64,000 nucleotides of DNA from Echinarachnius parma. Its lineage: Eukaryota; Echinodermata; Echinoidea; Clypeasteroida; Echinarachniidae. Below the pieces are notes generated by a model. The model was not told the DNA's origin. It did not search any database and saw only the letters and a program-made list of their open reading frames with translations. Shown here piece after piece: positions 1-64,000 of the stretch. Location of the stretch: contig JBAMJV010003058.1 in assembly GCA_037951105.1 (NCBI GenBank), positions 1 to 64,000 of the forward strand, given 5' to 3'. Made by a program: the position numbers and the translations under genes. The stretch's first letter is position 1, and the number at the start of each line of letters is the position of its first letter.

Positions 1-1271
1 ACTACAAGAAAGCAATCCAGAAGCAAATCGAATCCCTTCAGACGAAAGCTACGACTAAAATTGCGACGATCGAAGCACACGCAGAGCTAGTAAAAGAACA
101 GAAAGCAGTTGTTGAGGTTGAACTTGATCAGAAGATAGCTGAGATCAACAAATCGTATGAAGAAGCAGTGAATCATCTCACCAGACAACGCAATAATCTC
201 ATCGACCGATGCAAAAAGAAAAGGCTTCTCACATCGCACAACTTGAGAAGATCAAGGAATCTGATGACATAGAGATGTGTCGCATTCGAAGTGCATCTGA
301 GCTAGTCGGCAATGGTGTCAAGGGATTGCTAGAGGGGCGTTCACTGGCTGTGCACAACACGATTTGTGGCAATTTGGAGAAAATGTTGGTTGAAAGTAAA
401 CCTGATGTCACGCAGCCCAGGGCCATAGCTGATCGTACACAGCGGGTGAAATTCACCAAGACTGATATTCACAACAGTCTGGGTGACTTGCAACTACCTG
501 ACTGGCAGCTTGAGAAGGTGAACACATTTCCTCTGTCATATACAGGTCCAAGGGATATTTTGCCTTTGTCGGATGGACGAGTGGCTATTGGATATTGGGA
601 TTGGAAGAGAATTGAGATGTTCACTGTTGATGGGCCACAGGAAACCGTGCTGGAGGGTGTGAAGGTATACCGTGTATCTGTCTTGTCTGATGGTCGCTAC
701 GTTGTACGAGGTACGGGTAACAATATCACACTGTACACGCAGGCATGGGAGAAGCTCAATGTTCAGTTCAGCACACTCTCATTCAATGGTGGAGGTTTAG
801 GAGCCATGTGTGTAGACAGGGATGACAACATATACGGTGGTTATACTTAAAAAAAAAAAGATCTCTGTATTCCGACCAGAAGGGGGTGTGCCATCTCGAA
901 AGATTCCGTGCCATGGCTATCAGCCTTGGGAAATCTGTCACATGAATCACAGCAAAAGGATGGTAGTGTGTGATTTGAAAGAGTCTGTCAAGGTCATTGA
1001 TGACAAGGATGAGAAAGGCACCGTAATTCATCACATCCAGGTGGATAGTCAGAATACACGCATCGCTGTCCTGAAGGATGATACCATACTGATTGCATGC
1101 AGGAAGGATACTCTGATGGGTATGGAGCTCTACACAAAAGACCTGAAGAAAATCAGAACAGTCCTCATGGGCTTTCCACTGGTAGATGGCATAGAGAAAT
1201 TGGTTGCCTTGCCCACTGGGGAGATTGCTGTAGTATCAGAGAATCAATTCATTGTCTTCCACAAAATCTAA
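1..1271 (+). pseudogene. TRIM-1: 3' part of a TRIM-propeller gene with two frame breaks
   Basis: The window opens inside the coiled coil of a TRIM paralogue, at a position matching about residue 189 of the intact 608-residue copies. The frame from base 3 reads coiled coil up to about base 212. A one-base deletion there, relative to TRIM-3, shifts it to the frame of 209-850, which runs through the first propeller blades. An 11-base A run at 849-859 then brings a stop (848-850), and the original frame resumes and carries blades 3 to 6 to the stop at 1269-1271. The RING and B-boxes lie off the left edge. The two shifts cancel and both lie in A-rich runs, so either this is a young pseudogene or the assembly has homopolymer errors. 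By homology it would be a RING E3 ligase. The coiled coil and several propeller loops are closest to TRIM-3. Confidence 0.85.
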
Positions 1272-13134: not shown

Positions 13135-16098
13135 TTAGTGACGCTGTACAGCAGATGATGAACATGGGCAGGCAAAACCTTCATCAAGACTGAATTTGTC
13201 TCTTTTTACAGACCAAAATCTCTCCAAGTTGGATTTGAAAACATTTATGGACGAGCTTTCTACAACATGCAAGGGTAGACTGTTCCATTCGTTAATCACT
13301 CTCTGTGAAAAAGAACACTGCCTCAACTTTAAATTGACGTGTTTCTTCTGCAGTTTGTACTGGTGACCTCTAGTTCTGCTTCCGGATGAAATATCAAACA
13401 GCTTTGATGGGTGAAGATCGTCAAGACTGTGTATTATTTTGTATATCTGGATCATATCTGCTCTATGGCGTCGGTAGGCAAGTGATGGCAAATTTAAGTG
13501 TTTCAGTCTCTCTTCATAACTCAGTTGTCTCAATGAGTGCACTAGTCGAGTTGCCCGCCGCTGAACCTTTTCAATTTTCGTAATGTCTTTCTTAAAGTAT
13601 GGGTGCCATACTGTGGAACAATATTCAAGGGCTGGTCTTACAATTGATTTGTACAGGTGCATAAAGCCTTTCTCGTCCATTGTGGAAAAGGTTCGTTTGA
13701 TGACTCCAAGTTTGCGGTTTGCCGAAGCACTAATAATGTCTACATGATGAGAAAATGACATCTTTTGGTCGAATGTAACTCCAAGATCCTTTTCAAGCTG
13801 TACTGCAGGGATGGAATCGCCCTCTGCGTTCATAGAGTATTCACAGCATGGATTGTTCTGACCATAATGAACGACCTTACACTTTTCTTGGTTGAAAGGG
13901 AGTTGCCATTGGCGAGACCATTCTTGCAGTCTGGTTAGCTCAGCTTGCAGGTTTCTTCCATCAGAGATGCTGTTTATTGGTGAATAAAGTTTTGTATCAT
14001 CTGCGAAGAGTCTAATCTGGCATCCTCGTCCTTGAAGTACTTCAGGAATGTCGTTAACATACAGCAGGAAGAGAACTGGCCCCAACACGCTGCCTTGTGG
14101 GACGCCACTAGCGACTGACGATTGAGATGACGAGACATTGTTGATGACTACCCGTTGTATTCTGCCTCTTAGAAAAGATTGGATCCAGTTCAGTAGGTTA
14201 CCTACTATGCCGTATGCCTCTACCTTTTTCAATAGTCTGGTGTGTGGGACCTTATCGAAAGCCTTGCTGTAGTCAAGATAAATACAGTCTATGCTTCCTT
14301 TCTCGTCTAGCACTTTTGTCCAGTTTTCTGTCACATCCAACAACTGTGTTGCACAAGATCTGCCTTTCCTAAAACCATATTGCTCATTCGCAAACAGCGA
14401 GTTGGAGTTCATGTACTTGACAATCTCATCTCTTACAATGGTTTCCATCAGTTTGGAGAGAACGCTCGTTAAACTCACTGGGCGATAGTTTCCTGGTTTT
14501 CTCTTATCTCCCTTTTTATAAATCGGGGTCACATTTGCTTCTTTCCAGGAGTCTGGTACTACACCTATGGATAGAGACTTGGTAAACAGGTTGGCCAGGG
14601 GCTTAGAGATGTAATCCACCAGTTCTTTCAGGATTCGATTATGCACTTGATCAGGTCCTGCAGATTTGGACTGATCCAGTTTTGAGATCATTTCCTTAAC
14701 CTTCTCTTCGGTAAAGGTTATTGTTTCGATACTTGTACCATGAACTCTAGATTCAAAATCCGGAACATTGGTTACATCCTCCACTGTGAAAACTGAAGTA
14801 AAGAATCTGTTCAGCGTTTCTGCTTTGTCTTTGTCCGATTCTGCTGTGGTTCCGTCAGATTTCTCCAGGGTTCCAATTCCTTGCTTGGTTTTAGTTTTGC
14901 TTTGCACATATCTCCAGAAGCTTTTGGGATTTGTCTTAACTTCTGATGTTAGTTTACTTTCAAATGACTTCTTTGCACTTACAACTTCCTTTGTTACTTC
15001 ATTCCTTGCCTTATTGAAAGTAACTCTATCAAGCTCGTTCTCTGTCTTCTGGAAACGGTTCCAAGCTTTGTGTTTAGTTTTTACGGCTTGTTTCACTTTA
15101 CTATTCATCCATAGTGGTTGCTGCTTTGATCTAGCTCTAACTTTTGGTACAAATCTATTTGTTAACATCTCAATGGAGCTAACAAGATCTTCGACCGTGT
15201 CCGTCGTATGAAAGATGTCGTTGATCTCTACATATTTCCGCATGCCATCATAATCACCTTTAAAATATGCAAAGTGTTCTGTATTTGTTAATCGATGAAT
15301 GCTGCCTGGAATGATCAGTCTAAACTTCAAAATCATGTGGTCACTTTTTCCAACTGGTGATGAAACTTCAAGGCAGTCCACCAAGTCCTCTTGATTTGTG
15401 ATAACTAGGTCCAGAACATTTGACTTCTGCCCTTCTCTTTTCCGTGTTGGTTCTTCAACTAGCTGTGACAAAAAATGGTCTTGGAGTAAGTCTATAAAAT
15501 CACTGGCATATCTACTCCCGGTTCCAGATACTGCAGGAATCTGCCAGTTGATATTTGGTAAGTTAAAGTCGCCGACGATGAACAAGTTAGAGGGTGACTT
15601 TCCCACTTCATGTATGAGGCGTGATAGGGATTCATCGTTAGAAACAGTACTGTTTGGGCTTCTGTAAATACATCCAAAAAGAATATCTTGTGATCCACAA
15701 ACAATTTTGCACCAGACGTTTTCTTCAAAGTCAATGTCTTCAAAAATAACTTGTTTTACTTGTAAATTCTTCTTTACATATATTACTATGCCTCTATGAC
15801 TTCTTGTAGGCAGGAACATATTGTAACCAGGAAACTGAAGTTCACTTTCTTCCACTGGTAACGCTGAGTTTTTAGGAAATATCTCTACCAAAGCAATAAT
15901 ATCTGGATCCACAATAGCAATCCTCGCTTCTAATTCAGTCTTCTTGTTAAGTAGAGAATCAACATTGCTGTACATACATGACAATTGGTCTTGGTTAAAA
16001 ACTTCAGTATTTACACAGTTATTTGATGCCTTGTGTTGGTTATTCTCTCTGAAAGGGTTAGTCTCTCTGAAAGGGCTGTGGGCTCTTGGGAGGACCAT
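13135..16098 (-). CDS. LINE ORF2: endonuclease-reverse transcriptase, intact
   Basis: A 987-residue protein. The apurinic-type endonuclease occupies roughly residues 35-265, with MYSNVDSLLNKK, FIVGDFNLPNINW and the GKSDHMIL motif. The reverse transcriptase follows at about 480-760 with KEANVTPIYKKGDKRKPGNY, QYGFRKGRS, YLDYSKAFDKVPH, GVPQGSVLGPVLF and the catalytic RLFADDTKLY. The C-terminal region (RPALEYCSTVWHPY, IQRRATR-like KVQRRATRLV, WNSLP) is typical of CR1/L2-group LINEs. It would nick target DNA and copy the element RNA. All catalytic motifs are present and there is no stop or frameshift, so it could be functional. The ATG at 16096-16098 lies inside the end of ORF1, overlapping by 41 bases in another frame. 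Clade assignment is from motif style only. Confidence 0.93.
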   Translation of the reverse strand: MVLPRAHSPFRETNPFRENNQHKASNNCVNTEVFNQDQLSCMYSNVDSLLNKKTELEARIAIVDPDIIALVEIFPKNSALPVEESELQFPGYNMFLPTRSHRGIVIYVKKNLQVKQVIFEDIDFEENVWCKIVCGSQDILFGCIYRSPNSTVSNDESLSRLIHEVGKSPSNLFIVGDFNLPNINWQIPAVSGTGSRYASDFIDLLQDHFLSQLVEEPTRKREGQKSNVLDLVITNQEDLVDCLEVSSPVGKSDHMILKFRLIIPGSIHRLTNTEHFAYFKGDYDGMRKYVEINDIFHTTDTVEDLVSSIEMLTNRFVPKVRARSKQQPLWMNSKVKQAVKTKHKAWNRFQKTENELDRVTFNKARNEVTKEVVSAKKSFESKLTSEVKTNPKSFWRYVQSKTKTKQGIGTLEKSDGTTAESDKDKAETLNRFFTSVFTVEDVTNVPDFESRVHGTSIETITFTEEKVKEMISKLDQSKSAGPDQVHNRILKELVDYISKPLANLFTKSLSIGVVPDSWKEANVTPIYKKGDKRKPGNYRPVSLTSVLSKLMETIVRDEIVKYMNSNSLFANEQYGFRKGRSCATQLLDVTENWTKVLDEKGSIDCIYLDYSKAFDKVPHTRLLKKVEAYGIVGNLLNWIQSFLRGRIQRVVINNVSSSQSSVASGVPQGSVLGPVLFLLYVNDIPEVLQGRGCQIRLFADDTKLYSPINSISDGRNLQAELTRLQEWSRQWQLPFNQEKCKVVHYGQNNPCCEYSMNAEGDSIPAVQLEKDLGVTFDQKMSFSHHVDIISASANRKLGVIKRTFSTMDEKGFMHLYKSIVRPALEYCSTVWHPYFKKDITKIEKVQRRATRLVHSLRQLSYEERLKHLNLPSLAYRRHRADMIQIYKIIHSLDDLHPSKLFDISSGSRTRGHQYKLQKKHVNLKLRQCSFSQRVINEWNSLPLHVVESSSINVFKSNLERFWSVKRDKFSLDEGFACPCSSSAVQRH

Positions 16099-16702
16099 CC
16101 TCGGCTTCCTTGTTCAGTGATGACCGAGTTGATAGCTCCTTTCTTCGAACAAGTTTGTCTCCTCGAATAACCCAATTTCTGTCCCCTTCACTTTGTCTCC
16201 TTTTCATCTCTTGGACCAGATTGTTTCTTGACACACGTTCTTTTTTTGTCAAGTCTTGTTGGATGTAGAGCTTCTTAAGGTCATTTGATCCAAATCGCAA
16301 CTTGCTGGCTTTCCTCCTTGCATCACTGCTCGACTCGGGGCTAGAAAATTCCACCAACAGAGGACGTGGTCTTGCATCGCTATCAAGATTCCTTCTCCCC
16401 AACCGCAGAACACGTTTCACGTCTCTGTCAACTTCCAGGTAGTCTAGCACCTCACGAACCCCACCAGTATCATAGTAGAGTCTTTCCTTACCATCTTCAG
16501 ATTTGAATTCCGCCATGCCTTGAATGATGATGTTGTGCTTCCTTCTTTCTTTTTCGTGTTCTTCTGCAGCACATTCTTGAAAAAGCGAATGCACAGTTGA
16601 GGCCAGTACATCGTCTTGCACACTCCTATGTTGTTGCGTGTCATCTTTCTGTTGAAGCGTAGCCTTTAGATCTTTCATGTCAGCTTCAAGCTGCTGGTAC
16701 AT
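16058..16702 (-). CDS. LINE ORF1 RNA-binding protein
   Basis: A 214-residue frame immediately upstream of ORF2. It begins with a short heptad-like stretch (YQQLEADMKDLKATL) suggestive of a coiled coil. It continues with a fold typical of LINE ORF1 proteins: ERRKHNIIIQGMAE, then KRVLRLGRR, RPRPLLVEF, LYIQQDLTKKERVSR and a basic end (RGDKLVRRKE). Proteins of this type bind and package element RNA. The start lies at the element edge, so the natural N-terminus may be longer and lost by 5' truncation. The end overlaps the ORF2 start. Confidence 0.85.
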   Translation of the reverse strand: MYQQLEADMKDLKATLQQKDDTQQHRSVQDDVLASTVHSLFQECAAEEHEKERRKHNIIIQGMAEFKSEDGKERLYYDTGGVREVLDYLEVDRDVKRVLRLGRRNLDSDARPRPLLVEFSSPESSSDARRKASKLRFGSNDLKKLYIQQDLTKKERVSRNNLVQEMKRRQSEGDRNWVIRGDKLVRRKELSTRSSLNKEAEDGPPKSPQPFQRD

Positions 16703-16890: not shown

Positions 16891-18717
16891 ATGGCAAGTG
16901 AAGATGCTGTCGTCATTCAAAGTTTGGAATGCAGCCTATGCTACGAGCTATTTACCCAACCAAAACTCTTGACTTGTGCCCACACATTCTGTAAAGAATG
17001 TTTGGTTCATCTCTACGCATGTCATCCCCAACAAAACCACCTCTCTTGTCCGATTTGTCGTCAGATTACCCAAATCAACAATGGAGACATATCTACACTG
17101 CAGACTAACATTTTGATTCATTCTATGGTTGAAGACTTGAAATCCGCCAAAAAACCCTGCACACTCTGTGACCCGGAAGCTAAATCTCATGCGGTACAAT
17201 ACTGTTCACAGTGTGATGAGTACATGTGTGACCCCTGCACAGTAGCTCATGGGAGGTACAAGAAGAACGTAAAACACGATGTGGTCAGCATGGATGACGT
17301 CAAGAAGGGAAAGGTCAAAGTGAAGCGTTTCTGTACCAAGCATACAGAGGAAGAGAAGCTGTATGTATGTACATCGTGTAACGTATCCATCTGCTTCAGA
17401 TGTCACATGCTCTACCACGGAAAACCGGATCACGAGATCAAAGAGGTGTCCGACTACAAGAAAACTATCAAAACGCAAATCAAATCCCTTCAGATGAAAG
17501 CTACGACAAGACTCGCGATAATCAAGGCACACACAGAGCTAGTACAGGAGCAGAAAGCAGTTGTTAAGGTTGAACTTGACCAGAGGATAGCTGAGATCAA
17601 CCAATCGTATGAAGAAGCAGTGAATCACCTCACCAGGCAACGCAATGATCTCATCGACCGATGCAAACATGAAAAGTCTTCTCACATCGCGCAACTTGAG
17701 AAGATCAAGGAATCAGATGACATAGAGATGTGTTGCATTCGAAGTGCATCTGAGCTAGTCGGCAATGGTACTAAGGCATTGCTAGAGGGGCAGACACTGG
17801 CTGTGCACAACACGATTTGTTGTGATTTGGAGAAAATGTTGGTTGAAAGTAATCCTGATGCCACACAGCCCAAATCCATAGCTGACTCTGCAAAGCGGGT
17901 GAAATTCACCAGGAGAGATACTCCCACCAGTCTGGGTGAATTGCGACAATGGCAGCTTGAAGAGGTGAGAACATTCCCCCTCTCACATGACAACCCATAT
18001 GATGCAGTGCCTTTGCCTAATGGTCAGATGGCTATTGGTTATTACATGGGGTCAGCGATTGAGATGTTCACTGTTGGTGGGCTACAAAGAACAGTGCTGA
18101 AGGGTGTGCATGTATTCTGTGTTTCTTTCTTGTCCGACAGTCGCTACGTTGTAAGATATATTCCCAACATGATCACACTGTACACAAATGCATGGGGGAG
18201 GCTTAATGTTCAGTTCAACACATCATCACTTAACGATGTAAATTTGGGAGGCATGTGTGTAGACAGGGATGACAACATTTACGTTGGTGATAACCTGGCA
18301 AAAAAGATAGCAGTATACCGACCAGAAGGTGGTGCGCCAATTCGGGAGATTCGGTGCCATGGCTATAAGCCTTGGGAAATCCGTCACATGAATCACAGCA
18401 CAAGGCTGGTAGTGTATGATTGCTCAAAGTCAGTCAGGGTCATTGATGACAGGGATGAGAAAGGCACCATCCTTCATCACATCCAGGTGGATAGTGGGAA
18501 TCCACACATTGCTGTCCTGAAGGATGATAGCATACTGGTTGCATGCAGGAAGGGTAAGCTGATGAGCATTGAGCTCTATACAAAGGACCTGGAGAAAATC
18601 AGATCAGTCCTCAAGGACTTTCCACTGGCAAATTACTTACGGAAATTGGTTGCATTGCCCACTGGGGAGATTGTTGGAGTATCAGAGAAGCAATTCATTG
18701 TCTTCCACAAAAGCTAA
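16891..18717 (+). CDS. TRIM-2: RING/B-box/coiled-coil/NHL-like propeller protein, 608 aa
   Basis: An intact single-exon coding frame. A C3HC4 RING uses C14, C17, C29, H31, C34, C37, C53 and C56. B-box1 is at about 90-129 (C90, C93, C105, C108, C113, C116, H120, H129). B-box2 is at about 148-181 (C148, H151, C160, C163, C168, C171, H176, H181). A charged coiled coil follows at about 186-300, and a six-bladed NHL-like propeller covers about 360-608. RING TRIM proteins are E3 ubiquitin ligases that dimerise through the coiled coil and select targets with the C-terminal domain; target and pathway are unknown here. The start is the ATG four bases after the splice acceptor. The RING half is almost identical to TRIM-4, while the propeller differs more. 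Innate immune function is possible by analogy to other expanded TRIM families, not shown. Confidence 0.93.
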   Translation: MASEDAVVIQSLECSLCYELFTQPKLLTCAHTFCKECLVHLYACHPQQNHLSCPICRQITQINNGDISTLQTNILIHSMVEDLKSAKKPCTLCDPEAKSHAVQYCSQCDEYMCDPCTVAHGRYKKNVKHDVVSMDDVKKGKVKVKRFCTKHTEEEKLYVCTSCNVSICFRCHMLYHGKPDHEIKEVSDYKKTIKTQIKSLQMKATTRLAIIKAHTELVQEQKAVVKVELDQRIAEINQSYEEAVNHLTRQRNDLIDRCKHEKSSHIAQLEKIKESDDIEMCCIRSASELVGNGTKALLEGQTLAVHNTICCDLEKMLVESNPDATQPKSIADSAKRVKFTRRDTPTSLGELRQWQLEEVRTFPLSHDNPYDAVPLPNGQMAIGYYMGSAIEMFTVGGLQRTVLKGVHVFCVSFLSDSRYVVRYIPNMITLYTNAWGRLNVQFNTSSLNDVNLGGMCVDRDDNIYVGDNLAKKIAVYRPEGGAPIREIRCHGYKPWEIRHMNHSTRLVVYDCSKSVRVIDDRDEKGTILHHIQVDSGNPHIAVLKDDSILVACRKGKLMSIELYTKDLEKIRSVLKDFPLANYLRKLVALPTGEIVGVSEKQFIVFHKS

Positions 18718-33203: not shown

Positions 33204-35030
33204 ATGGCAAGTAAGGATACTGCAGTTACTCAAAGTTTGGAATGCTGCCTATGCTTCGACTATTTCAACGAACCTAAGTTCCTGAGTTGTGGGCACACCT
33301 TTTGTAAGGAATGTTTGGACAACCTCTACAGATGTCATCCACAACAAAACCAGCTCTCTTGTCCGATTTGTCGTCAGATTACTAATATTAACAATGGAGA
33401 CATTTCTAAACTACAAAGTAACGTTCTCATTAATTATATGGTTGAGGATGTGAAATCCGCCGAAAGAAGCTGCACTGTCTGTGAAGCAAAATCTTTTGCC
33501 AAACAAATCTGCGAACAGTGTGACGAGTACATGTGTGACCCCTGCACAGCGGCTCATGGGAACTTTAAGAAGAACACAAAACATGACGTGGTTAGCATGG
33601 ACGATGTCAAGAGGGGGATGGTCAAAGTGAAGCATTTTTGTACGAAGCATCCAGAGGAAGAGAAGCTGTATGTCTGTACATTGTGTAACGTATCCATCTG
33701 CTTCAGATGTCGCGTGATTGACCACGGCAAAGCGAGTCACGAGATCAAAGAGGTGGCTGACTACAAGAAAACAATCCAGAAGCAAATCCAATCCCTTCAG
33801 ACAAAAGCTACAACTAAAATTGTGACAATCGAGGCACACGCAGAGTTAGTAAAGGAACAGAAAGCAGTTGTTGAGTTGGAACTTGATCAGAGGATAGCTG
33901 AGATCAACCAATCGTATGAAGAATTAGTGAAGCATCTCACGAGGCAACGCAATGATCTCATCGACCGATGCAAACAAGCAAAGGCTTCTCACATCGCACA
34001 ACTAGCGGAGATCAAGGAATCCGATGACATAAAGATGTGTTGCATTCGAAGTACATCTGAGCTAGTCGGCAATGGTATCAAGGCATTGCTAGAGGGGCAG
34101 AAACTGGCTGTACATAACACCATTTGTTGTGATTTGGAGAAAATGTTGGATGAAAGTAATCCTGATGCCACACAGCCCAAATCCATAGCTGACCGTGCAA
34201 AAGGGGTGAAATTCACCAAGAGCAATACTCCAACAAGTATGGGTGATTTGCAGTTTTCTGTCTGGCAGCTTGAGGAGGTGAACGCATTTCCACTCTCACA
34301 TGGCCATCCACGGGATGCAGTACCATTGCCTGATGGACGGGTGGCCGTTGGTTATTACATGGGGAAAGCGATTGAGATGTTCACTGTTGATGGGCCGCAG
34401 GAAACCGTGCTGAAGGGTGTGAAGGTACGCTGTGCATCTGTCTTGTCTGATCGTCGATATGTTGTAGGAGATACTGGTAACAATATCACACTGTACACAC
34501 AGGCATGGGAGAGGCTCAATGTTCAGTTCAACACACTCTCAATTAGGAATAGAGGACTAGGGGGCATGTGTGTAAACAGTGATGACAACATCTACGTTTT
34601 TTATAGTAAGACAAAGAAGATTGTTGCATTCCGACCAAAAGGTGGTGCGCCACATCGGGAGATACTGTGCCACGGACATGAGCCTTGGGAAATATGTCAC
34701 ATGAATCACAGCAGAAGGCTGGTAGTGTGTGATTGGTTTAAGTCAGGCAGGGTCATTGATGACACGGATGAGGAAGGCGCCATCCTTCATCATATCCAGT
34801 TGGATAGTCAGAATACACGCATTGCTGTCCTGAATGATGATAGCATACTGATTGCACGCGAGAAGGATGATCTGCTGAGTATTGAGCTGTACACAAAGGA
34901 CCTGAAGAGAATCAGAACAGTCTTGGGGGAATTTCTTCTGGCAGACAAAATGCGAAAATTGGTTGCTTTGCCCTCTGGACAGTTTGTAGTAGTATCATAT
35001 GAAAAATTCGTTGTCTTCCGGAAAATCTAA
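33204..35030 (+). CDS. TRIM-3: RING/B-box/coiled-coil/NHL-like propeller protein, 608 aa
   Basis: Intact coding exon beginning MASKDTAV, four bases after the splice acceptor. The RING has the same C3HC4 spacing as TRIM-2 (ECCLCFDYF, CGHTFCKECL, CPICRQ). B-box1 is two residues shorter between its second and third cysteines, and two extra residues (LQFSVWQLEE) before the propeller restore the total to 608. B-box2 (HFCTKHPEEEKLYVC onward) is complete. The coiled coil spans about 185-300 and the six propeller blades about 360-608. It is the most divergent of the three intact copies in the RING and B-box1, and closest to TRIM-1 in the coiled coil. Expected role: E3 ubiquitin ligase, with the propeller as binding module; partners unknown. 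The reading upstream of this ATG is intron. Confidence 0.93.
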   Translation: MASKDTAVTQSLECCLCFDYFNEPKFLSCGHTFCKECLDNLYRCHPQQNQLSCPICRQITNINNGDISKLQSNVLINYMVEDVKSAERSCTVCEAKSFAKQICEQCDEYMCDPCTAAHGNFKKNTKHDVVSMDDVKRGMVKVKHFCTKHPEEEKLYVCTLCNVSICFRCRVIDHGKASHEIKEVADYKKTIQKQIQSLQTKATTKIVTIEAHAELVKEQKAVVELELDQRIAEINQSYEELVKHLTRQRNDLIDRCKQAKASHIAQLAEIKESDDIKMCCIRSTSELVGNGIKALLEGQKLAVHNTICCDLEKMLDESNPDATQPKSIADRAKGVKFTKSNTPTSMGDLQFSVWQLEEVNAFPLSHGHPRDAVPLPDGRVAVGYYMGKAIEMFTVDGPQETVLKGVKVRCASVLSDRRYVVGDTGNNITLYTQAWERLNVQFNTLSIRNRGLGGMCVNSDDNIYVFYSKTKKIVAFRPKGGAPHREILCHGHEPWEICHMNHSRRLVVCDWFKSGRVIDDTDEEGAILHHIQLDSQNTRIAVLNDDSILIAREKDDLLSIELYTKDLKRIRTVLGEFLLADKMRKLVALPSGQFVVVSYEKFVVFRKI

Positions 35031-49224: not shown

Positions 49225-52200
49225 AGCAATGTCTGCATAGACAGCGTTGAATGGGCCATCCCTCCGAATCTACTGTTTTTACTTGTGCTTCATGATGCCA
49301 AAGAACCGGTAACTTTCCACTCAAGCAGATGGAGAAGGGATTACAATCCGGATCTCTGCTTCCTGTCCAAAACCAGCAATGGCCGCCCACTACATGCATC
49401 TCGCAAGATACTTCCTCTCTTCCGTCATAGCCAACATCGTCCAGCTTTAATCCATATTGGAGTAGAGATACCTCTTATCCAATCAAAGCCCCAACCACGA
49501 TGGAACTTTAGGAAAGCTGACTGGAAAGCCTTTACAGATGACGTGGAGGAGCAAATCACCAATCTTGAACCAGTCCCCAAATGCTACACATCCTTCTGCA
49601 ATATCCTCAAGGACACTGCCAAGAAACACATCCCTCGTGGCTTTCGTAAAGTCTTCACACCTTGCTGGCTGCCAGAGACACAAGAGCCCCTCAAGCAGTA
49701 TTAATCCACTGGTGATCCAGACATTGCAACAGAACTCTTGGATTCCCTTGACACAGCTAGACAAAAGCGCTGGCAAGAGACAGTAGAAGATCTCAACTTT
49801 ACACACTCGAGCCAGAAGGCCTGGAACCTTCTTCGACATCTTGGAGCAGCAACCCCGGTTCAACATCAACCTCCTAAAGTAACAGCAAATGCTGTTGCTT
49901 CACGCCTGCTCCTCAATTCCAAGGTACCTTCTACAAAGGCATCACGTAAAGAAGTCAAGAAGAACCTTTCCAAGTCCTACTCAACATCAGCTAAGACTTC
50001 CCCACTTGCAAGACCTTACACTAGATCCACAAAATCAGGGAAAGCTGCGGGAATTGATGGAATCTACCCAGAATTCCTGAAGAACCTTGGACCAAAAGGC
50101 CGCGGCTGGCTGGCCTCATTCTTCACATACATCCACTCTTCCGGAGTTATCCCAAAGGCTTGGAGAGAGGCTAAAGTGATTGCGATCATCAAACCAGGGA
50201 AACCTGCGAACGACCCTGCAAGCTAGAGATAGATAGATAGATAGATAGTTTATTTCAAAAATCATGATTCGCGGCATAGCCGAATTGTACATGATAAAAA
50301 TACATTTAAAAACATCAAAATGGACAAAGTGCATCTTTTACAAAGCAAAGTACATAAATAAGCAAATTCAAAATCATGTCAAAATAATATACATTTGATA
50401 AATGCAAATTTTCTAACATTGACAATAGTAGTGGTAGGCAGTAAGAATAAATAAATACTCAATATATAATCAGGTGGAATAGAGAGAAAATGAGGAATAT
50501 TAGAAGAATAAAGAGATGAAAAGAGGAGGGGGAAGTAAGGGACGACGGTGAAGGGTGAAGAGGAATAAGAAGAAGAAGAAGAAGAAGACAAAGAAGGGGG
50601 AGAGAAGGAGAAAAAAGGAGAAATGGAGAAGGAGCAGAAGTAATAGGGTAATAATGCATAGATTAGAATAAGAAGTATTTATTGAAAAATCCTAGTCAAG
50701 TAGGTCGTTCATAGTAAGTTATATGATTTCAAGAGGATACTTGTATTATGAGCCTAACCAAGTAAACAAATCAAATACAGTAACATATATATTTAGGGAG
50801 TTTGATAGAGTTACGCCATTAAAATAAATCATCTTACTACTTATATATAAGATAATGAAATATAATCATCAGAGAAGTACAACTAAGTAGTTGAATTGTG
50901 TGGGGGATACATAATGCACTTATATTTGTTGCAAATTACATATAAATTAATATTTCTCCAATATTTAAAAATTTAAAATACTTAAATACTGCTAATTGTT
51001 GCATGTTTACAATACATCTAATATAATTTAGCTCACTAATATTATTGAATCTGTATTACATTTCTATATCAAATTATTTCTTGTGAGTATATTAACAAAA
51101 AATCAAACAATAATTTCAATATACATATTTAATGTGTGAACGAATTATGCATTGTGTATATTGCACCAGAATTCTATTTTAAATATAACATTTATAAAAA
51201 CAAGAACAACTTAATTGTACACACAAATTCTATAAAAAGAGATAAAAACTAATATTATATATGTGATCATTTTCCCTAAACATAAATATTGCAATATTTC
51301 AAATCTATTTCATAAATGAAAGCTGACTAATTGTCATTGAACAATTGGATAAGCGATGGTATGGGGCTAGTCTGCATCCGTTTGGTTTTGCATCTCAATT
51401 GAGGAATCTTTTGAGTTTTTCTTAGTACTCTCGTACTACGTTGTTGTTGTTTTGGGAGGAAATTTTGAAACTGATTTGTGGAGGAAAGAGTACTTTTAAA
51501 AAACCTAAGTGAAAGATCTTTTCTTCGTTGTTCCAGTGTGTCCAAGTTGGAGAGGGCAAGGGTGGCATTGTAATCAGTAAAGTCATTTTGGTAAATAATG
51601 CGGAGAGCACGTCTTTGAATTCTCTCCAAGCTACCGTCCCATCTCTCTTCTGTGCACATCCTACAAACTGTTCGAGCGCCTCCTTCTAGTCAGGCTTAGC
51701 CCATTGGTAGAATCTGTGCTACCAAAGGAGCAAGCAGGCTTCAGACCGAAAAGGAGCTGTTCCGACCAAGTCCTAGCCCTCACTACCTACATCGAGGCAG
51801 GATATCAGCGCGCCCTCAAAACGGGCGTGGCACTGATTGACCTCTCATCAGCCTACGACACTGTATGGAGACATGGCCTGCTACTCAAAGCGTCCCGCAT
51901 CTTCAAGTGTCAGACAACCAGACGCATCCTTGCTTCCATACTCAGCAACAGAAGATTCAGAGTTTCACTTGGAGGACAAACAAGCTAGGCTAGAACCCTC
52001 AACGACGGCCTCCCTCAAGGATCTGTCTTGGCCCCGATGCTTTTTAACATCTATGTAAGTGACATGCCGGAGACCACGTCCAGGAAATTTGCGTATGCAG
52101 ATGACCTTGCACTAGCTACCCAATCCACCGATTTCAACGTACTTAGCAGAACCCTCAGCGAGGACATGAAGATGATGGAGGACTACTTCACCTACTGGCG

Positions 52201-53076
52201 CCTTCGTCTCAATCCCAATAAGACTACAACCACTGCCTTCCACCTCAGTAACCGACAAGGGAAAACAGAACTGAATGTCACCTTCTGTAGCAAAACAGTT
52301 AAGCATGAAGAGTTCCCCAAATACCTAGGAGTTACCCTGGACCGCAGCCTCACCTATCGCGAACATCTCAAGAGGGTTTCTGGAAAACTGAAGACCAGAG
52401 TCAACATTATCCGGAAGCTTGCAGGAAATAGCTGGGGTTCAGACACACAAACCCTCCGAACAGCCTGCATAGCTCTAGTCTACTCTGTTGCAGTGTACTG
52501 CTCACCAGTGTGGACAGAGAGCTGCCATACCAAGAAGATAGATGTAATCTTGAACTCGGCTATGAGAATAATTACTGGCACCCTTAAGTCAACACCTCTT
52601 CAATGGCTACCTGCTCTCTCCCACATCGCTCCCCCTGGTGTACGCAGACAGGAGATAATGCGCAAGGAACTACACCGCACCTCCACCAACCCAGACCTAC
52701 CTATCCACGAAGACCTAGGAAACCTACCCAAAATGCGCCTCAAATCACGGACACCCTTTTGGACTTCTGCAAAGTCTCTAGTTTGACCTGAAAGGAGAAT
52801 GGCGCAAAACCTGGGTAGAGTCCGACTTCCCTAACCATGACCTTGTACAGGATTCTACGTCAGAGCCAGCTGGGTTCAACCTCCCCAGAAAGCAATGGGT
52901 GACTCTGAACAGGATAAGAACACAGCCCTGCATGTGACTGCGGGAACCCAGACCAGACAGTGAAGCATGTGGTAAACGACTGCCCTCTCCGATGTTTCCC
53001 TGACAGTTTTGAGGGGATTCATCAGACAACAGATGTTGCTCTGACCTGGCTGAGAAACCTAGACTTGAATTTATAA
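49225..53076 (+). pseudogene. Decayed LINE (I/Nimb-like), endonuclease end to C-terminus
   Basis: The frame enters near the end of an endonuclease domain (NPDLCFL, HSQHRPALIHIGVEIPL, PRWNFRKADW). A reverse transcriptase follows: KAAGIDGIYPEFLK, AWREAKVIAIIKPGK, then after an insertion YRPISLL, EQAGFRPKRSCSDQVLALT, LIDLSSAYDTVW, LPQGSVLAPMLFNIYV and the catalytic FAYADDLALA. Then come YLGVTLDRSLTYREHLK and ITGTLKSTPLQWLP. A C-terminal zinc-knuckle-like CDCGNPDQTVKHVVNDC ends with LDLNL. Stops at 49702-49704 and 51986-51988 and frameshifts near 52785 and 52930 make it dead. A second LINE is inserted at 50226-51626. A tail of (AATA)n lies at 53127-53156. Clade assignment is tentative. Confidence 0.85.
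50226..51626 (-). mobile_element. 5'-truncated LINE inserted inside the older LINE
   Basis: Flanked by an exact 7-base duplication CAAGCTA at 50219-50225 and 51627-51633. Removing the insert and one copy restores the host frame (NDPAS joined to YRPISLL). On the minus strand the insert begins with a reverse transcriptase C-terminal segment of about 100 residues (LERIQRRALRIIYQ, LDTLEQRRKDLSLRFF, IPSLIQLFND). A long 3' untranslated region follows, containing a CTT-rich tract (about 50500-50650), and it ends in (TATC)n at 50226-50248. The C-terminal motif fits CR1/L2-type LINEs, which often end in microsatellites. Confidence 0.88.
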
Positions 53077-53226: not shown

Positions 53227-56200
53227 GAGGTCAGGTCAGGTCAGGTCAGATGATCTCTCTTGCTACCGGTAAACATGTAGCCCGGTACCACCTGCCACAT
53301 GGTCGACACCTTGGCGACTAAACCGAGGTCCTCCTCTGAAACAATGGCCCAAGCATGAGGAGGGGGTGCTGGACCTCCTGTTAGAAGAAAGAACCACAAT
53401 CTGACTTAAGAGCTCCTTTAGATCCGACAGGAGACCAAGGAGCTCATTCAGCCTCTACCAATTCACCTTGCCAGTGCGGCAGAGTAGGCAATTATCCTTC
53501 ATCAACATGGAAACGAGACAAAGAAGAGGTCGTAATGCCCAAGGCCAAAACGGGCCCAGCTCTACAGGTACTGGTAGAGCTAGGAAACCGGCGAATGGTG
53601 ATCCTTCTGGTGCCAAGCCAAATTATGACGAGTTGGGTCCAAAGCCGCAAGGACGAGTCAGCTCTGAGAAAGGTATCATCAGGAACCACACAGATTTATG
53701 TATTTGCACTTATAATGTAAGGACACTAAGGTCAGAAGAAGACCTAGACACCCTCCTTGAAGAAATAGAGAATGTGAAGTGGCATATTATAGGACTCGCA
53801 GAAACAAGAAGACCACTAAACCTCATTAAGTTAAATAGGTGTGGCCACACATTGTTTACTACCTCTGCAACCAAAAGAGGAAATAATGGAGTAGGATTTC
53901 TGGTTAATTTGAAAGTAATATACTGGAGTATAAAGAAATATCAGACCGAATGGCATATTTAAAATTAGAAATTAATAAACAACACACAATGAAGATTATT
54001 CAAGTCTATGCACCCACTTCAGCTCACGACGACGAAACAGTAGAAGATTTATACACTGACATAGACCGGATAATGGCAACGGAAAATACATCCTTCACTA
54101 TACTCATGGGAGACTTAAATGCAAAGATAGGAGTAAGAAAAGATCAGGAAGAGAATGGTGTAGGTCCATTTGGGATAGGTGACCGGAACGAGAGAGGGGA
54201 AAGGCTTCTAGAATATGTTGCAAGCAGAAACATGGTGATTGGCAATACATGCTTTAAGAAACCAAAGGACAGATATTGGACATGGGAAAGTCCTAATGCA
54301 GCAACCCATAATATGATTGATTACATGATTACGGACCACAAGAGAATATTGATGGATGTAGAGGTTATACCGAAGGTCGACACAGGCAGTGACCATAGAT
54401 TTGTTAGAGCAAAAGTAAGGATCAACAAGAAGATGGAAAGGATAAGAAGAATGAAGATATCAAGGAAAAGACATATTGACTTGGGAAAGCTTTCAGAAAA
54501 ACAACACCAATTCCAACTTGAATTAGAGAACAGATTCTCACTTCTAGAAGACTTTGTAGGCGATGAGCCACTTGATGATGCATTTGAACAAGTAACAAGT
54601 GCGATTATGGAGGAAGCAGAGAAGCTAGCTAAAGGTAAAAAAGAGATAGCAAACACAAACAATAGCAGCGCGGAAGATATTCGAAAAATTAACGAAAAGA
54701 GAAAAGCTCTCAAACCCTTCAGACAGACATCGGCACAAAACCAGATCGAGTATACAGAACTAAACAAGACAATCCGCAAGATGAGAAGGCGGCAAAAGAG
54801 ACAACACAGGACCAAGATGGTGAAAGAGGTGCTGGAAAGCAATAAAGGGCCCAAAATCATCAATACACAACTGGAGGGAGGAAAAAAGCTCTTATCATCA
54901 CTGAAAACAAAAGATGGGACAGAAGTTAACGACAAAGACAAAATCACAGAAACCATTGAGGAATTCTATAGAGAACTGTATGATAGAGATAGACCAGATT
55001 GGAGAACAGCAGAAAATTGGAATGAAAAAGCGGACAGTGTACCACCCATTGAGAAAGACGAAGTGCAGAAAGCTCTAGATCACATGAAGAAAGGAAAGGC
55101 TCCTGGAGAGGACCAGTTAACCGCTGACATATTGAAGCTGGGAGGAAAGAGTACTGTCGACATCTTGACAAAACTGTTCAACAGGATCCTTCAACTGGAA
55201 CAAGTTCCTACTCAGTGGAATGAATCTAAAGTTATTATACTGTTAACAAAAGGAGATACAAAAGACATAAAGAATAATAGATCCATTAGTTTACTACCTC
55301 ACATGTACAAGGTTTTCACAAAAAATATTCTTGCAAGAATCCAAAGACAACTAGATGAAAATCAGCCAAGAGAACAGGCAGGCTTTCGAGCAGGATTCAG
55401 AACATCAGACCATCTACACACTTTAAGTCAGATCATTGAAAAGGCGAAGGAATATCGTTTGGACATTTGCCTTGGATTTGTAGATTACGAGAGAGCCTTC
55501 GATAGTTTAGACCACCAGTCACTATTATATGCTCTACAGAAACAGATAGACGATGAGAAATACATCCGCCTCATCAAAGCTATTTACAAAGACCCTAGCG
55601 CCAGAATTCATCTGGAGAATACGACTACCAATAGTTTTAAAATCCTAAAAGGTGTCAGACAGGGTGATCCAATATCTCCGAAACTCTTTACAGCAGCCAT
55701 GGAAGACGTCTTTAGAAACCTGGATTGGCAATCGAGAGGAATTAAAATAAATGGGGAATATTTGAATTATTTATGGTTTGCAGATGGCATTCTGCTTGTT
55801 AGTCATGATCCTCTGGAACTACAGACGATGATCCAGGAGTTGAGCGTAGAGAGTAAAAAGGCAGGACTCAAAATGAACACTAAAAAGACTAAAGTAATGA
55901 TGAGCAACCAGCTACAAGACCATACAATTGCAGTTGATGGCATGACAATTGAGAAGGTGGATAGTTACATATACCTCGGTAAAAACATCACTCTTGAAAA
56001 TGAAACAGCAGGAGAAGTGCGACGAAGAATACAGCTAGCTTGGGTGAAATTTGGGAAACTCAGCATTATACTCCGAGATGAGAATCTTCCAATCTCCCTC
56101 AAAAGACAAATTTTCAATCAATGCATAATTCCGGTACTATCCTACGGGGCAGAGACTTGAGCGACAACTTAGAAATTGGAAAAGAAGCTTAGAGTCACAG

Positions 56201-60500: not shown

Positions 60501-60671
60501 TTGAATGTCGAGCCCTACTGAAGTTGAACGCTACTATTTCTTGATATAGTATAACTATTTGACAGGTAAATTAGCTTGTAGTGATCTTTCTTTACATAGA
60601 AGAACATTTCCATCAACCAATCAGTACTCATGACCACATCCTTTCAATCGTTGTGTCCTATTTACAGAACC

Positions 60672-62498
60672 ATGGCGAGTGAAGATGCTGTAGTCGCTCA
60701 AGGTTTAGAATGCTGCCTATGCTACGAGCTATTCACCCAACCAAAACTCTTGACATGTGCCCACACTTTCTGTAAGGAATGTTTGGTTCATCTCTATGAA
60801 TGTCATCCCCAACAAAACCAGCTCTCTTGTCCGATTTGTCGTAAGATTACCCAAATCAACAATGGAGACGTATCTACACTGCAGACTAACATTTTGATTC
60901 ATTCTATGGTTGAAGACTTGAAATCCGCCAAAAAACCCTGCACACTCTGTGACCCAGAAGCTAAATCTCATGCGGTACAATACTGTTCACAATGTGACGA
61001 GTACATGTGTGACCCATGCACAGTAGCTCATGGGAGATACAAGAAGAACACGAAACACGATGTGGTCAGCATGGATGATGTCAAGAGGGGAAATGTCAAA
61101 GTGAAGCGTCTCTGTACCAACCATCCAGAGGAAGAGAAGCTGTATTTCTGTACATCATGTAATGTGTCCATCTGCTTCAGATGTCATATGCTCGATCACC
61201 CCAAACCGGATCACGAGATCAAAAATGTGTCCGACTACAAGAAAACTATCAAAACGCAAATCACATCCCTTCAGATGAAAGCTACGACAAAACTCGCGAC
61301 AATCAAGGCACACACAGAGCTAGTACAGGAGCAGAAAGCAGTTGTTGAGGTTGAACTTGACCAGAGGATAGCTGAGATCAACCAATCGTATGAAGAAGCA
61401 GTGAATCACCTCACCAGGCAACGCAATGATCTCATCGACCGATGCAAACATGAAAAGTCTTCTCACATCGCACAACTTGAGAAGATCAAGGAATCTGATG
61501 ACATAGAGATGTGTTGCATCCGATGTGCATCTGAGCTAGTCGGCAATGGTACCAAGGCATTGATAGAGGGGCATACACTGGCTGTGCACAACACGATTTG
61601 TTGTGATTTAGAGAAAATGTTGCGTGAAAGTAATCCTGATGCCACACAGCCCAAATCCATAGCTGACTCTGCAAAGCGGGTGAAATTCACCAGGAACGAT
61701 ACTCCCAACAGCCTGGGTAAATTGCGACAATGGCAGCTTGAGAAGATGAGCACATTCACCCTCTCACATTGCCACCCATGGGATGCGGTGCCTTTGCCTG
61801 ATGGTCGGGTGGCTATTGGTTATTACAATGGGATGGCAATTGAAATGTTCACTGTTGATGGGCCACAGGAAACAGTGCTGAAGGGTGTGTTTGTATTCAG
61901 TGTATCTGTCTTGTCTGACAGTCGCTACGTTGTACGAGATATTCCCAACAATATCACACTGTACACACATGCATGGGAGAGGCTCAATGTTCAGTTCAAC
62001 ACACTTTCATCCTATGATGGGGGACTAGGGGCCATGGATGTAGACAGTGATGACAACATCTACGTTGGTCATTATCCAAAAACAAAGATTGTTGTATTCC
62101 GACCAGAAGGGGGTGCACCGTTTCGGGAGATTCCGTGCCATGGCTATGCGCCTCGTGAAATCAGTCATATGAATCACAGCAAAAGGCTGGTAGTGTGTGA
62201 TTGGTCAAAGTCAGTCAGGGTCATTGATGACACGGATGAGGAAGGCACAGTCCTTCATCACATCCAGGTGGATAGTGAGAATCCACGCATTGCTGTCTTG
62301 ACGGATGATAGCATTCTAATTGCATGCAGGAAGGATGGTCTGATGAGTATTGAGCTCTACACAAAATACCTGCAGAAAATCAGAACAGTCCTCAGGGACT
62401 TTCCACTGGCAGATCAGATATGTAAATTGGTTGAATTGTCCACTGGAGAATTTGTTGTGGTATCAGAGAAGCAATTCATTGTCTTACGTAAAATCTAA
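60672..62498 (+). CDS. TRIM-4: RING/B-box/coiled-coil/NHL-like propeller protein, 608 aa
   Basis: Intact coding exon starting MASEDAVVAQGLECCLCYELF, four bases after the acceptor. The RING is C3HC4 (LTCAHTFCKECLVHLYECH, CPICRK). B-box1 (CTLCDPEAKSHAVQYC..HGRYKKNTKH) and B-box2 (LCTNHPEEEKLYFC..CHMLDHPKPDH) are complete. The coiled coil spans about 185-300. Blades are about 368-405, 406-447, 448-489, 490-532, 533-577 and 578-608. The N-terminal half is nearly identical to TRIM-2. Loop residues in each propeller blade differ (for example HPWDAV, YYNGMAIE, GYAPREISH). Expected role: RING E3 ligase with the propeller as recognition module, by family analogy to TRIM-NHL and TRIM56-like proteins; target unknown. 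Confidence 0.94.
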   Translation: MASEDAVVAQGLECCLCYELFTQPKLLTCAHTFCKECLVHLYECHPQQNQLSCPICRKITQINNGDVSTLQTNILIHSMVEDLKSAKKPCTLCDPEAKSHAVQYCSQCDEYMCDPCTVAHGRYKKNTKHDVVSMDDVKRGNVKVKRLCTNHPEEEKLYFCTSCNVSICFRCHMLDHPKPDHEIKNVSDYKKTIKTQITSLQMKATTKLATIKAHTELVQEQKAVVEVELDQRIAEINQSYEEAVNHLTRQRNDLIDRCKHEKSSHIAQLEKIKESDDIEMCCIRCASELVGNGTKALIEGHTLAVHNTICCDLEKMLRESNPDATQPKSIADSAKRVKFTRNDTPNSLGKLRQWQLEKMSTFTLSHCHPWDAVPLPDGRVAIGYYNGMAIEMFTVDGPQETVLKGVFVFSVSVLSDSRYVVRDIPNNITLYTHAWERLNVQFNTLSSYDGGLGAMDVDSDDNIYVGHYPKTKIVVFRPEGGAPFREIPCHGYAPREISHMNHSKRLVVCDWSKSVRVIDDTDEEGTVLHHIQVDSENPRIAVLTDDSILIACRKDGLMSIELYTKYLQKIRTVLRDFPLADQICKLVELSTGEFVVVSEKQFIVLRKI

Positions 62499-63041: not shown

Positions 63042-63156
63042 TATTGCATTGTTTATGAATTACACAACCATTTGCAAAGTGTTGGGCATCTATTTGATAT
63101 AACACAACGGTACCAAAACATACAATTATGTGTTGTTCTCTGCCTGGTGGTCCCCT

Positions 63157-63795
63157 TTAAAGGGACATTCCCTCTTTTGCAAGCCAAATTTCAAAAGTTG
63201 CGAGGTTATTGTCTTATATGAAAGAAAATATCATTTAATAGCATGCCTGAAAAAATTAGGGCTTGAAATCTCTTTTTCGTGGAGTTATAGACCTAAAACT
63301 AATAAACCGTCGTCCAATTTTAATTGTAGATTATACGTATATTCACCCAGTGAGGAAGTTCGTACATGGATTCCACGAAGTACCATAATGCTATGCGTGA
63401 CCCCTACGTGACCCGCGCTAGCTACATGACCCGCGCACAAATAAGAATAGCACGACCGCACACTAGGCAAAATAACCCAACCTCGCTTAAACTGACTACA
63501 TGTAATTACATATTGTTCATTTTTGAGATTTGTTTCCGTGACATACCTTTACAAATGTCGGCTTCACAATACCTTTAAAAGAATAAGTACAATATAGTTG
63601 TAATATTATGCTAAATCAGTTAAACTCTTTTATTGACCGATATATAGTCTGATGGAGGGACGCATTCGTTTTTCATTCGTAGAATCCAAATTATAGGGCT
63701 GTTCGATCTGATTTTGTTGGTGTGTGTTTCATTCATCCCCATCCGTCAACTGGAAACTGTTCAGACGTTTTGTAAAAGAGGGACTGTCCCTTTAA
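63157..63795. mobile_element. MITE with TTAA target duplication (copy 2)
   Basis: Same family as 1580-2200, with TTAA at 63157-63160 and 63792-63795, AGGGACATTCCCTCTTTTGC at the left and its mirror at the right. Interior blocks (GTGACCCCTACGTGACCCGCG and ATTTGTTTCCGTGACATACC) are shared. It sits at a different point of the TRIM flank from copy 1. Confidence 0.85.
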
Positions 63796-64000
63796 GCTAT
63801 AATACATGTACTTTAACATGATGAAGACTATCTAGATTTGGTATAACACACATTCTCCATAGATTCCAGATAATGTGTTTTGTGGACCAATTCTGAATGT
63901 GTTAAAGCAACACAGTATCATCTTGAATGGGTTAATGGGCTCATGGAAAATATTTATTCACGATTTCTTTGAACTTGACAAATTCATGTGTATATCAATG
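63796..64000. other. TRIM-4 3' flank
   Basis: Continues the shared TRIM 3' flank (CACATTCTCCATAGATTCCAG, then TGTGTTAAAGCAACACAGTAT), matching 1520-1580 plus 2201-2260 without the MITE that splits them there. No gene before the window ends. Confidence 0.7.

What the first reader, a model, noticed from the sequence alone, without database searches (positions are those of the whole stretch)
60672..62498. Paralogue differences concentrate on one face of the TRIM propeller
I aligned TRIM-1 to -4 by eye. The propeller divides into six blades with plan: variable entry, strand a, conserved D/N-G/D turn, strand b, variable loop, strand c, conserved turn, strand d. Differences recur at the entry of strand a (SYTGPRD / SHDNPYD / SHGHPRD / SHCHPWD; VKVYRV / VHVFCV / VKVRCA / VFVFSV; GYQPWEIC / GYKPWEIR / GHEPWEIC / GYAPREIS; LVDGIE / LANYLR / LADKMR / LADQIC). 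They recur again in the b-c loop (YWDWKRIE / YYMGSAIE / YYMGKAIE / YYNGMAIE; RGTGNN / RYIPNM / GDTGNN / RDIPNN; CDLKES / YDCSKS / CDWFKS / CDWSKS). The a-b and c-d turns barely change. Loops d-a and b-c lie on the same side of an NHL-type propeller, the side used for ligand (RNA) binding in Brat. A ligase family varying one recognition face, with constant RING and B-boxes, would be an NHL counterpart of the B30.2-diversified fish TRIMs and a candidate undescribed recognition system.
Basis: partly seen in the sequence, partly recalled or inferred. Interest (0 to 1): 0.88.

Follow-up and report, generated by a model that had tools for sequence, protein, structure and literature searches.

The report
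Sea-urchin TRIM ligases diversify one face
A sea-urchin-like genome carries dozens of copies of a ubiquitin-ligase gene that keep their catalytic front end constant while selection keeps changing one side of the disc-shaped recognition domain, as expected of a built-in repertoire of recognition proteins.

Summary
TRIM-4 (60672-62498) belongs to a single-exon TRIM family with at least 72 places on 31 contigs of its genome, mostly in same-strand arrays. AlphaFold gives a confident six-bladed propeller; the best structural alignments are NHL domains. In 58 cleaned copies omega is 0.25 for RING, 0.36 B-boxes, 0.44 coiled coil, 1.00 propeller. Within the propeller it is 1.60 for d-a/b-c loops and 0.64 for a-b/c-d loops; selected sites number 30 of 58 and 6 of 56. 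This survives segment-wise trees, multi-hit codon models, simulations and splitting the family; a single-base-only count away from gaps gives 0.93. Another echinoid set varies on the same face. The eight closest pairs show no excess. The face is net negative, so RNA is not the favoured ligand. TRIM-1 is broken and cut off. N-terminal and propeller halves have conflicting trees. Best reading: an NHL-propeller counterpart of fish finTRIMs; ligand and immune role are untested.

The parts
60672..62498 (+). TRIM-4, single-exon coding sequence of 608 residues: RING, two B-boxes, coiled coil, six-bladed NHL-type propeller
   Evidence: open frame, Pfam RING and B-box above cut-off, AlphaFold, VIA-align to NHL domains
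60699..60851 (+). RING (residues 10-60), under purifying selection
   Evidence: Pfam; omega 0.25 for residues 1-60 and 0 of 60 selected sites; entropy 0.49; eight zinc ligands kept in 58 of 58 copies
60930..61232 (+). two B-boxes (residues 87-187), under purifying selection
   Evidence: Pfam; omega 0.36; ligands kept in 57 of 58 (first box) and 58 of 58 (second)
61233..61670 (+). coiled coil (residues 188-333)
   Evidence: one predicted helix 186-295 and shorter ones; omega 0.44
61737..62495 (+). six-bladed NHL-type propeller (residues 356-608)
61761..61775 (+). top loop d-a into blade 1 (residues 364-368)
   Evidence: DSSP of the model; selected C367
61824..61835 (+). top loop b-c of blade 1 (385-388)
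   Evidence: selected Y385, N386
61884..61892 (+). top loop d-a into blade 2 (405-407)
   Evidence: selected G405, F407
61941..61952 (+). top loop b-c of blade 2 (424-427)
   Evidence: selected I424, P425
61995..62033 (+). top loop d-a into blade 3 (442-454), the longest; contains gaps between copies
   Evidence: selected T444, S447, Y448, D449, A454; gapped columns
62073..62084 (+). top loop b-c of blade 3 (468-471)
   Evidence: selected Y468, P469, K470
62136..62156 (+). top loop d-a into blade 4 (489-495)
   Evidence: selected A493, R495
62199..62210 (+). top loop b-c of blade 4 (510-513)
   Evidence: selected W511, S512, K513
62268..62285 (+). top loop d-a into blade 5 (533-538)
   Evidence: selected E536, N537, P538
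62334..62339 (+). top loop b-c of blade 5 (555-556)
   Evidence: selected G556
62406..62417 (+). top loop d-a into blade 6 (579-582)
   Evidence: selected L579, A580, D581, Q582
62466..62471 (+). top loop b-c of blade 6 (599-600)
   Evidence: selected E599, K600
16891..18717 (+). TRIM-2, intact paralogue: 92.5 % identical to TRIM-4 in the N-terminal part, 58.6 % in top loops
33204..35030 (+). TRIM-3, intact paralogue: 77 % identical to TRIM-4 in the N-terminal part, 55.2 % in top loops
1..1271 (+). TRIM-1, 3' part only, broken: two changes of frame; not used in the selection tests

Best explanation
This is a tandemly expanded family of single-exon TRIM ubiquitin ligases with an NHL-type propeller in an echinoid genome, evolving as a recognition repertoire. 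Shown here: RING, B-boxes and coiled coil are held by purifying selection; the propeller is held on its strands and bottom; the d-a and b-c loops on its top have been diversified by positive selection between paralogues; front and propeller halves have conflicting histories, so recombination or gene conversion has acted between copies. Inferred: each copy assembles through its coiled coil, binds a different ligand with the top of its propeller, more likely protein or peptide than RNA, and marks it or its surroundings with ubiquitin. Most likely ligands: fast-changing ones, such as proteins of viruses or intracellular microbes.
For: Top-loop omega 1.60 (2dlnL 48.7), 1.77 with segment trees (56.6), against 0.64-0.66 bottom and 0.25-0.44 in RING to coiled coil. 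Selected sites top 30 of 58, bottom 6 of 56, strands 19 of 139; neutral simulation mean 2.0, maximum 18 in all 253 positions (20 runs), recombining neutral simulation maximum 31, at most 13 in the top (20 runs). Both halves of the family repeat it: omega 1.70 and 1.44, 15 shared sites against 3.6 expected. Multi-hit model 1.57-1.74. Tree-free pairs 1.34 (1.14-1.73). Relatives from unnamed ENA contigs: entropy 1.75 top, 0.78 bottom. Zinc ligands of the RING kept in 58 of 58. TRIM genes are induced in S. purpuratus coelomocytes after UVB (PMC13043383, passages).
Against: No expression, ligand or infection data for these genes. The 8 closest pairs show top pN/pS 0.45. Single-base codon changes alone give 1.17 in the top loops, and 0.93 away from gaps. 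The second gene group of this genome shows the face only weakly and without significance in five close copies. 9 of 71 copies read are interrupted or frame-altered, which also fits ordinary birth and death of genes.
Confidence: 0.6

Rival explanations
1. Relaxed constraint: the top loops are tolerant and the copies redundant, so variation accumulates neutrally on that face.
For: Loops tolerate change and gaps; single-base changes away from gaps give pN/pS 0.93; some copies are broken.
Against: Omega above 1 with 2dlnL 28-57 in five model and tree combinations (single-hit and multi-hit, full and segment trees) and 6.2-6.5 on the 24 columns away from gaps. The bottom loops are also loops and stay at 0.64. 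The single pair P0025/P0026 of two other urchins keeps its top loops at 83 %.
Confidence: 0.15
2. Artefact of recombination, gene conversion, multi-base mutation or loop misalignment, which can imitate positive selection.
For: Recombination is real: conflicting trees cost 601 and 1361 lnL units. Multi-base changes are frequent in top loops (160 codons in 16 pairs) and many top columns lie near gaps: 24 of 58 remain away from gaps.
Against: Segment trees give 29 top and 3 bottom sites. Recombining neutral simulations give nearly equal numbers on the two faces (means 4.6 and 3.8). Multi-hit models keep 1.57-1.74. Synonymous rates are not lower in the N-terminal half.
Confidence: 0.08
3. RNA-binding regulators whose target motifs have diversified, as between Brat and LIN-41.
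For: Closest folds include RNA-bound Brat and Lin41; NHL domains of different subfamilies have very different upper surfaces (PMC5908797, passages).
Against: Net charge of top loops -3.8 on average, at most +3; arginine is rarer at selected top sites than in the rest of the propeller (2.5 against 6.2 %, uncleaned set). Only loops were counted; no surface was computed.
Confidence: 0.1
4. Conflict other than infection: control of transposons, gamete or self recognition, or a degradation system for changing food or toxin proteins.
For: Nothing in the sequence names the ligand; the window is rich in retroelement reading frames.
Against: Only inference: TRIM genes of a sea urchin respond in immune cells (PMC13043383, passages), not these genes.
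Confidence: 0.2

Closest known systems
finTRIM (ftr), btr and hltr/trim35 families of teleosts (PMC3137616, passages)
   Same: Large TRIM families with constant RING, B-boxes and coiled coil and positively selected loops of the C-terminal recognition domain; recombination among copies considered there too.
   Different: They carry a B30.2 domain; here the domain is an NHL-type propeller and the animal an echinoid. No B30.2 match at E up to 1.
TRIM-NHL proteins: Mei-P26, Brat, TRIM2, TRIM3, Thin, NHL-2, Lin41/TRIM71
   Different: Those are described as developmental regulators; several bind RNA with a positive top (PMC9070667, passages). Here there are dozens of copies and a variable, net negative top.
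HNWD (het-d, het-e) receptors of Podospora (PMC1805685, passages)
   Same: Propeller whose interaction platform is under diversifying selection in a gene family, with exchange between members.
   Different: WD40 repeats on an NLR, repeats nearly identical and shuffled. Here blades are not alike: no repeats in the DNA, pairwise blade identities low where alignable.
Expanded TRIM genes of S. purpuratus (PMC13043383) and of brittle stars (PMC11310086), passages
   Same: Many TRIM genes in echinoderms; expressed in coelomocytes or in wound response.
   Different: The passages seen describe no diversified propeller face.
MATH-BTB and F-box adaptor families of nematodes (recalled, not looked up)
   Same: Expanded ubiquitin-ligase parts with positive selection in the substrate-binding domain.
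   Different: Different domains and different ligase type.

Membership tests
TRIM (RBCC) ligases | RING with eight zinc ligands | tested here: met
   Pfam above cut-off in 3 of 3 window copies; ligand positions kept in 58 of 58 copies
TRIM (RBCC) ligases | one or two B-boxes | tested here: met
   TRIM-4 above the Pfam B-box cut-off, TRIM-2 and TRIM-3 below it; ligand positions kept in 57 of 58 and 58 of 58
TRIM (RBCC) ligases | coiled coil | tested here: met
   predicted helix of 110 residues, 186-295; by prediction only
TRIM (RBCC) ligases | ubiquitin-ligase activity | not testable with these tools
   needs a bench assay
TRIM-NHL class | NHL-type six-bladed propeller | tested here: met
   in Foldseek's list NHL domains follow four COP1 chains aligned at rmsd 33.5-37.3
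TRIM-NHL class | NHL repeats recognised by sequence | tested here: inconclusive
   PF01436 15.5 and 12.4 bits in TRIM-2 and -3, cut-off 20, not listed for TRIM-4
finTRIM-type families | B30.2 (PRY-SPRY) domain | tested here: not met
   no such match at E up to 1 in 3 window copies; propeller instead
finTRIM-type families | multigene expansion with positively selected recognition loops | tested here: met
HNWD-type repertoire | NACHT/WD40 architecture with near-identical repeats | tested here: not met
   RING and B-boxes; no repeats in the propeller DNA
RNA-binding NHL domains (Brat, LIN-41) | positively charged top surface | tested here: not met
   top loops mean charge -3.8, range -13 to +3, in 58 copies; loops only, no electrostatic surface computed
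RNA-binding NHL domains (Brat, LIN-41) | RNA binding | not testable with these tools
   needs a bench assay

The most novel reading that the evidence does not exclude
A germline-encoded repertoire of some hundred propeller-tipped ubiquitin ligases, in which selection edits one binding face and recombination re-pairs faces with a constant RING module, serves echinoids as a cytosolic non-self recognition system, built separately in at least two echinoid lineages.
Probability: 0.45. Interest if true: 0.87.

Novelty: new variant of a known kind. Interest (0 to 1): 0.73.

Why it matters
Large TRIM families with a positively selected recognition domain are known in vertebrates with the B30.2 domain. 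The same pattern on one face of an NHL-type propeller would show that a constant ligase with an edited recognition face arose on a second scaffold, in animals without vertebrate adaptive immunity. It supplies a list of residues and dozens of natural variants with which to ask what such a propeller recognises. None of my ten paper searches listed a paper whose title, abstract start or passages I saw describe this; the library holds open-licence papers only and no bioRxiv preprints.

Tried and rejected
Homogenisation of the N-terminal half by gene conversion was considered as cause of the contrast and rejected: synonymous rates are not lower there. Recombination as the only cause: not favoured after segment trees and simulation; a first simulation script timed out without output. 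Multi-base mutation was modelled and did not remove the signal. RNA as ligand: disfavoured by charge. Allelic hyper-diversity: looked for in the closest pairs, not seen. Repeat shuffling inside the propeller: looked for, not seen.

The first round contained one copy with a frame-shifted propeller (L070) and two with altered tails (L052, L059). I found this from odd charges, checked the other rows, dropped or masked them and redid trees and tests. The tree script ended with an error in its last step, after the trees were made. The amino-acid composition and the count of distinct faces are from the uncleaned. The site analysis is my own FUBAR-like script, not the published program. The family count is a lower bound: one search scored 72 of 1178 first-look candidates, one search scored 71 of 1110; some contigs may be haplotypes of one another. 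Naming the species through a mitochondrial gene and a third census search failed because the genome search did not complete. In VIA-align's list (50 rows shown) families that are absent are not excluded.

Full report
What is there. TRIM-4 is a 608-residue open frame at 60672-62498. Pfam finds a RING above cut-off in all three intact window copies and a B-box above cut-off in TRIM-4 only; NHL repeats score below cut-off. The window holds two more intact copies, TRIM-2 (16891-18717) and TRIM-3 (33204-35030), and the 3' part of a broken one, TRIM-1 (1-1271), whose frame changes twice and whose 5' end lies beyond the contig. The named protein relatives are sea urchins (Strongylocentrotus, Lytechinus, Diadema) and, far weaker, the brittle star Amphiura; I infer an echinoid or a near relative.

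The family. A search of that genome gave 72 places on 31 contigs; 72 of 1178 first-look candidates were scored. On the window's contig 12 copies, not counting TRIM-1, lie on one strand with starts 10-32 kb apart; 14 of 15 contigs with two or more copies have all of them on one strand. I read 71 of the 72 places (L001-L070 and TRIM-3 in the window; one place on C1388 was not fetched). 62 of 71 have an intact frame that aligns throughout; 9 are interrupted or frame-altered. A query with a Lytechinus protein gave 71 scored places, 9 of them already seen and 62 new, at 36-42 % identity to the query. So at least 134 places carry such genes or pieces, some perhaps haplotypes of one another.

The face. 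I dropped six near-identical copies and L070, masked the altered tails of L052 and L059 and kept 58 copies. Mean entropy is 0.49 in RING, 0.56 in B-boxes, 0.59 in the coiled coil, 1.90 in top loops, 0.65 in bottom loops and 0.78 in propeller strands. Entropy correlates with height at r=0.50; of 252 circular shifts one reaches this, the shift by one residue. Omega is 0.25 (residues 1-60), 0.42 (61-86), 0.36 (B-boxes), 0.44 (coiled coil), 1.34 (linker 334-355, 2dlnL 4.0) and 1.00 (propeller); within the propeller 1.60 top, 0.64 bottom, 0.77 strands. Sites with posterior above 0.9 for beta>alpha: top 30 of 58, bottom 6 of 56, strands 19 of 139; with segment trees 29, 3 and 16; outside the propeller 12 of 355, 6 of them in the linker. 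Fisher test top against bottom: p 2e-6 (all). In the uncleaned set of 65 copies 61 had their own combination at 30 selected top positions.

Controls. Neutral simulation on one tree gave on average 2.0 and at most 18 false sites in 20 runs. Neutral simulation with each segment on its own tree, analysed on one tree, gave on average 17.8 and at most 31 (top mean 4.6, maximum 13; bottom mean 3.8, maximum 10) in 20 runs; analysed with segment trees, mean 9.8, maximum 24, top maximum 6, bottom maximum 10. Splitting the family into 38 and 20 copies gives top omega 1.70 and 1.44 (2dlnL 35.9 and 11.4); of 40 and 23 selected propeller sites 15 are shared, 3.6 expected (all). A multi-hit model keeps top omega at 1.57 (2dlnL 28.1, full tree) and 1.74 (39.8, segment trees); on the 24 top columns away from gaps it is 1.41 in both (6.5 and 6.2). 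Without a tree, 16 disjoint pairs at 2.55-12 % give pN/pS 1.34 (bootstrap 1.14-1.73) top, 0.54 bottom, 0.68 strands, 0.29 N-terminal. The strictest form, single-base codon changes only, gives 1.17 top, and 0.93 without gap-adjacent columns, against 0.46 and 0.47 bottom. So the contrast between the faces stands in every form; the excess over 1 does not stand in that last form, which also discards the fastest codons.

Results against. The eight closest pairs (under 2.55 %; one pair identical, some on one contig, some possibly alleles) give pN/pS 0.45 top (0.17-0.84) and 0.50 N-terminal. Diversification is seen between paralogues and not between the nearest copies; one assembly cannot tell whether alleles vary in populations.

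Relatives. In a tree of 107 proteins the 58 copies form one clade (support 0.62), 23 proteins from unnamed ENA contigs a second (1.0); both together (1.0) join P0025 of S. purpuratus and P0026 of Lytechinus variegatus (0.86). I read the two large sets as separate expansions, with modest support for the first clade. In the ENA set entropy is 1.75 top and 0.78 bottom; in 18 further urchin-group proteins (P0029-P0048 as far as aligned, one of them unnamed) 1.44 and 0.82; 0 of 252 shifts reach the correlation with height in either. P0025 and P0026 are 83 % identical in top loops and 86 % in the N-terminal part. In the second group of this genome the effect is weak over 12 diverse propellers (1.47 top, 1.19 bottom; 8 of 252 shifts as high); in five closer ones omega is 1.43 top (2dlnL 1.9) and 0.59 bottom (3.6).

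Recombination. The propeller alignment loses 601 lnL units on the N-terminal tree and the N-terminal alignment 1361 on the propeller tree. With third positions alone the losses are 370 and 665, AU p below 1e-41 (56 copies). Synonymous distances of the two halves correlate at r=0.36 over 1540 pairs; their means are 0.30 (N-terminal) and 0.24 (propeller), so the front is not homogenised. I infer that exchange or conversion adds to the repertoire.

Ligand. Top loops average -3.8 net charge, bottom loops -7.1. Several RNA-binding NHL domains are described with a highly positive top (PMC9070667, passages), though negative patches on such surfaces are also reported (PMC5908797, passage). Selected top positions are richer in W, G, N, T, K and D than the rest of the propeller (uncleaned set). 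I read this as protein or peptide binding, by inference only.

What it is like. By architecture it is a TRIM of the NHL class, by predicted structure and not by Pfam score. By evolutionary behaviour it is like the fish ftr, btr and hltr families with positively selected B30.2 loops (PMC3137616, passages) and, for the propeller, like the fungal HNWD receptors, in which four positions per WD40 repeat at the interaction surface are under diversifying selection (PMC1805685, passages). It is a member of neither. Coral tachylectin-2, another protein with repeated binding blades, also shows positively selected surface residues (PMC2880987, passages). A 2026 paper counts 140 TRIM-annotated genes in S. 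purpuratus and reports TRIM genes induced in coelomocytes after UVB (PMC13043383, passages); a brittle-star paper mentions an expanded TRIM-like family (PMC11310086, passage); PMC3503706 (passages) links tandem TRIM expansions to external aggression. None of these passages describes a diversified NHL face. The oyster paper PMC4346834 and the sea-cucumber papers PMC13228809 and PMC5638244 were searched for TRIM and NHL: no NHL in any; the passages shown hold nothing on TRIM genes.

Conclusion. Positive selection on one propeller face between paralogues is well supported. A recognition repertoire is the best reading; its ligands and an immune role remain inference.

Noticed in passing
window 13138-16098 (-), 52028-52786 (+) and 53950-56160 (+): Reading frames with reverse-transcriptase matches, two of them with endonuclease matches as well: non-LTR-type retroelements between the TRIM copies. 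Neighbouring frames at 16061-16702 and 49738-50226 had no Pfam match at E 0.001.
   Followed up: partly
window about 1579-2202 and 63156-63797: The same element of about 640 bases, 92 % identical, downstream of both TRIM-1 and TRIM-4, with inverted ends of about 25 bases beside TTAA: looks like a short non-autonomous DNA transposon.
   Followed up: partly
window 60660-60671: A splice-acceptor-like stretch ends four bases before the start codon of TRIM-4, so an intron in the 5' untranslated region is likely; not tested.
   Followed up: no
window 61671-61736 (TRIM-4 residues 334-355): The linker between coiled coil and propeller also varies: omega 1.34, 6 of 22 sites selected on one tree, but 1.06 with segment trees in the uncleaned set.
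   Followed up: partly
G000 contigs C6335 and C8143 (L031/L033, L048/L044): Two near-identical pairs at similar spacing, 27.7 and 29.3 kb: probably haplotypes of one locus.
   Followed up: partly
TRIM-3 (33204-35030), L039 on C5885, L040 on C796: Three copies only 2.3-3.1 % different on three contigs whose other copies differ more; whether alleles, recent duplicates or converted copies is open.
   Followed up: no
G000, 62 further places (e.g. L071-L083): A second, more diverse group of single-exon TRIM-propeller genes, nearer to Lytechinus and Diadema proteins, sampled here only in part.
   Followed up: partly
P0025 and P0026: S. purpuratus and Lytechinus each show one close protein in the clade of this family, 83-89 % identical to one another in all parts, so the expansion may be absent there; the protein collection is clustered and this is not a census.
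   Followed up: partly
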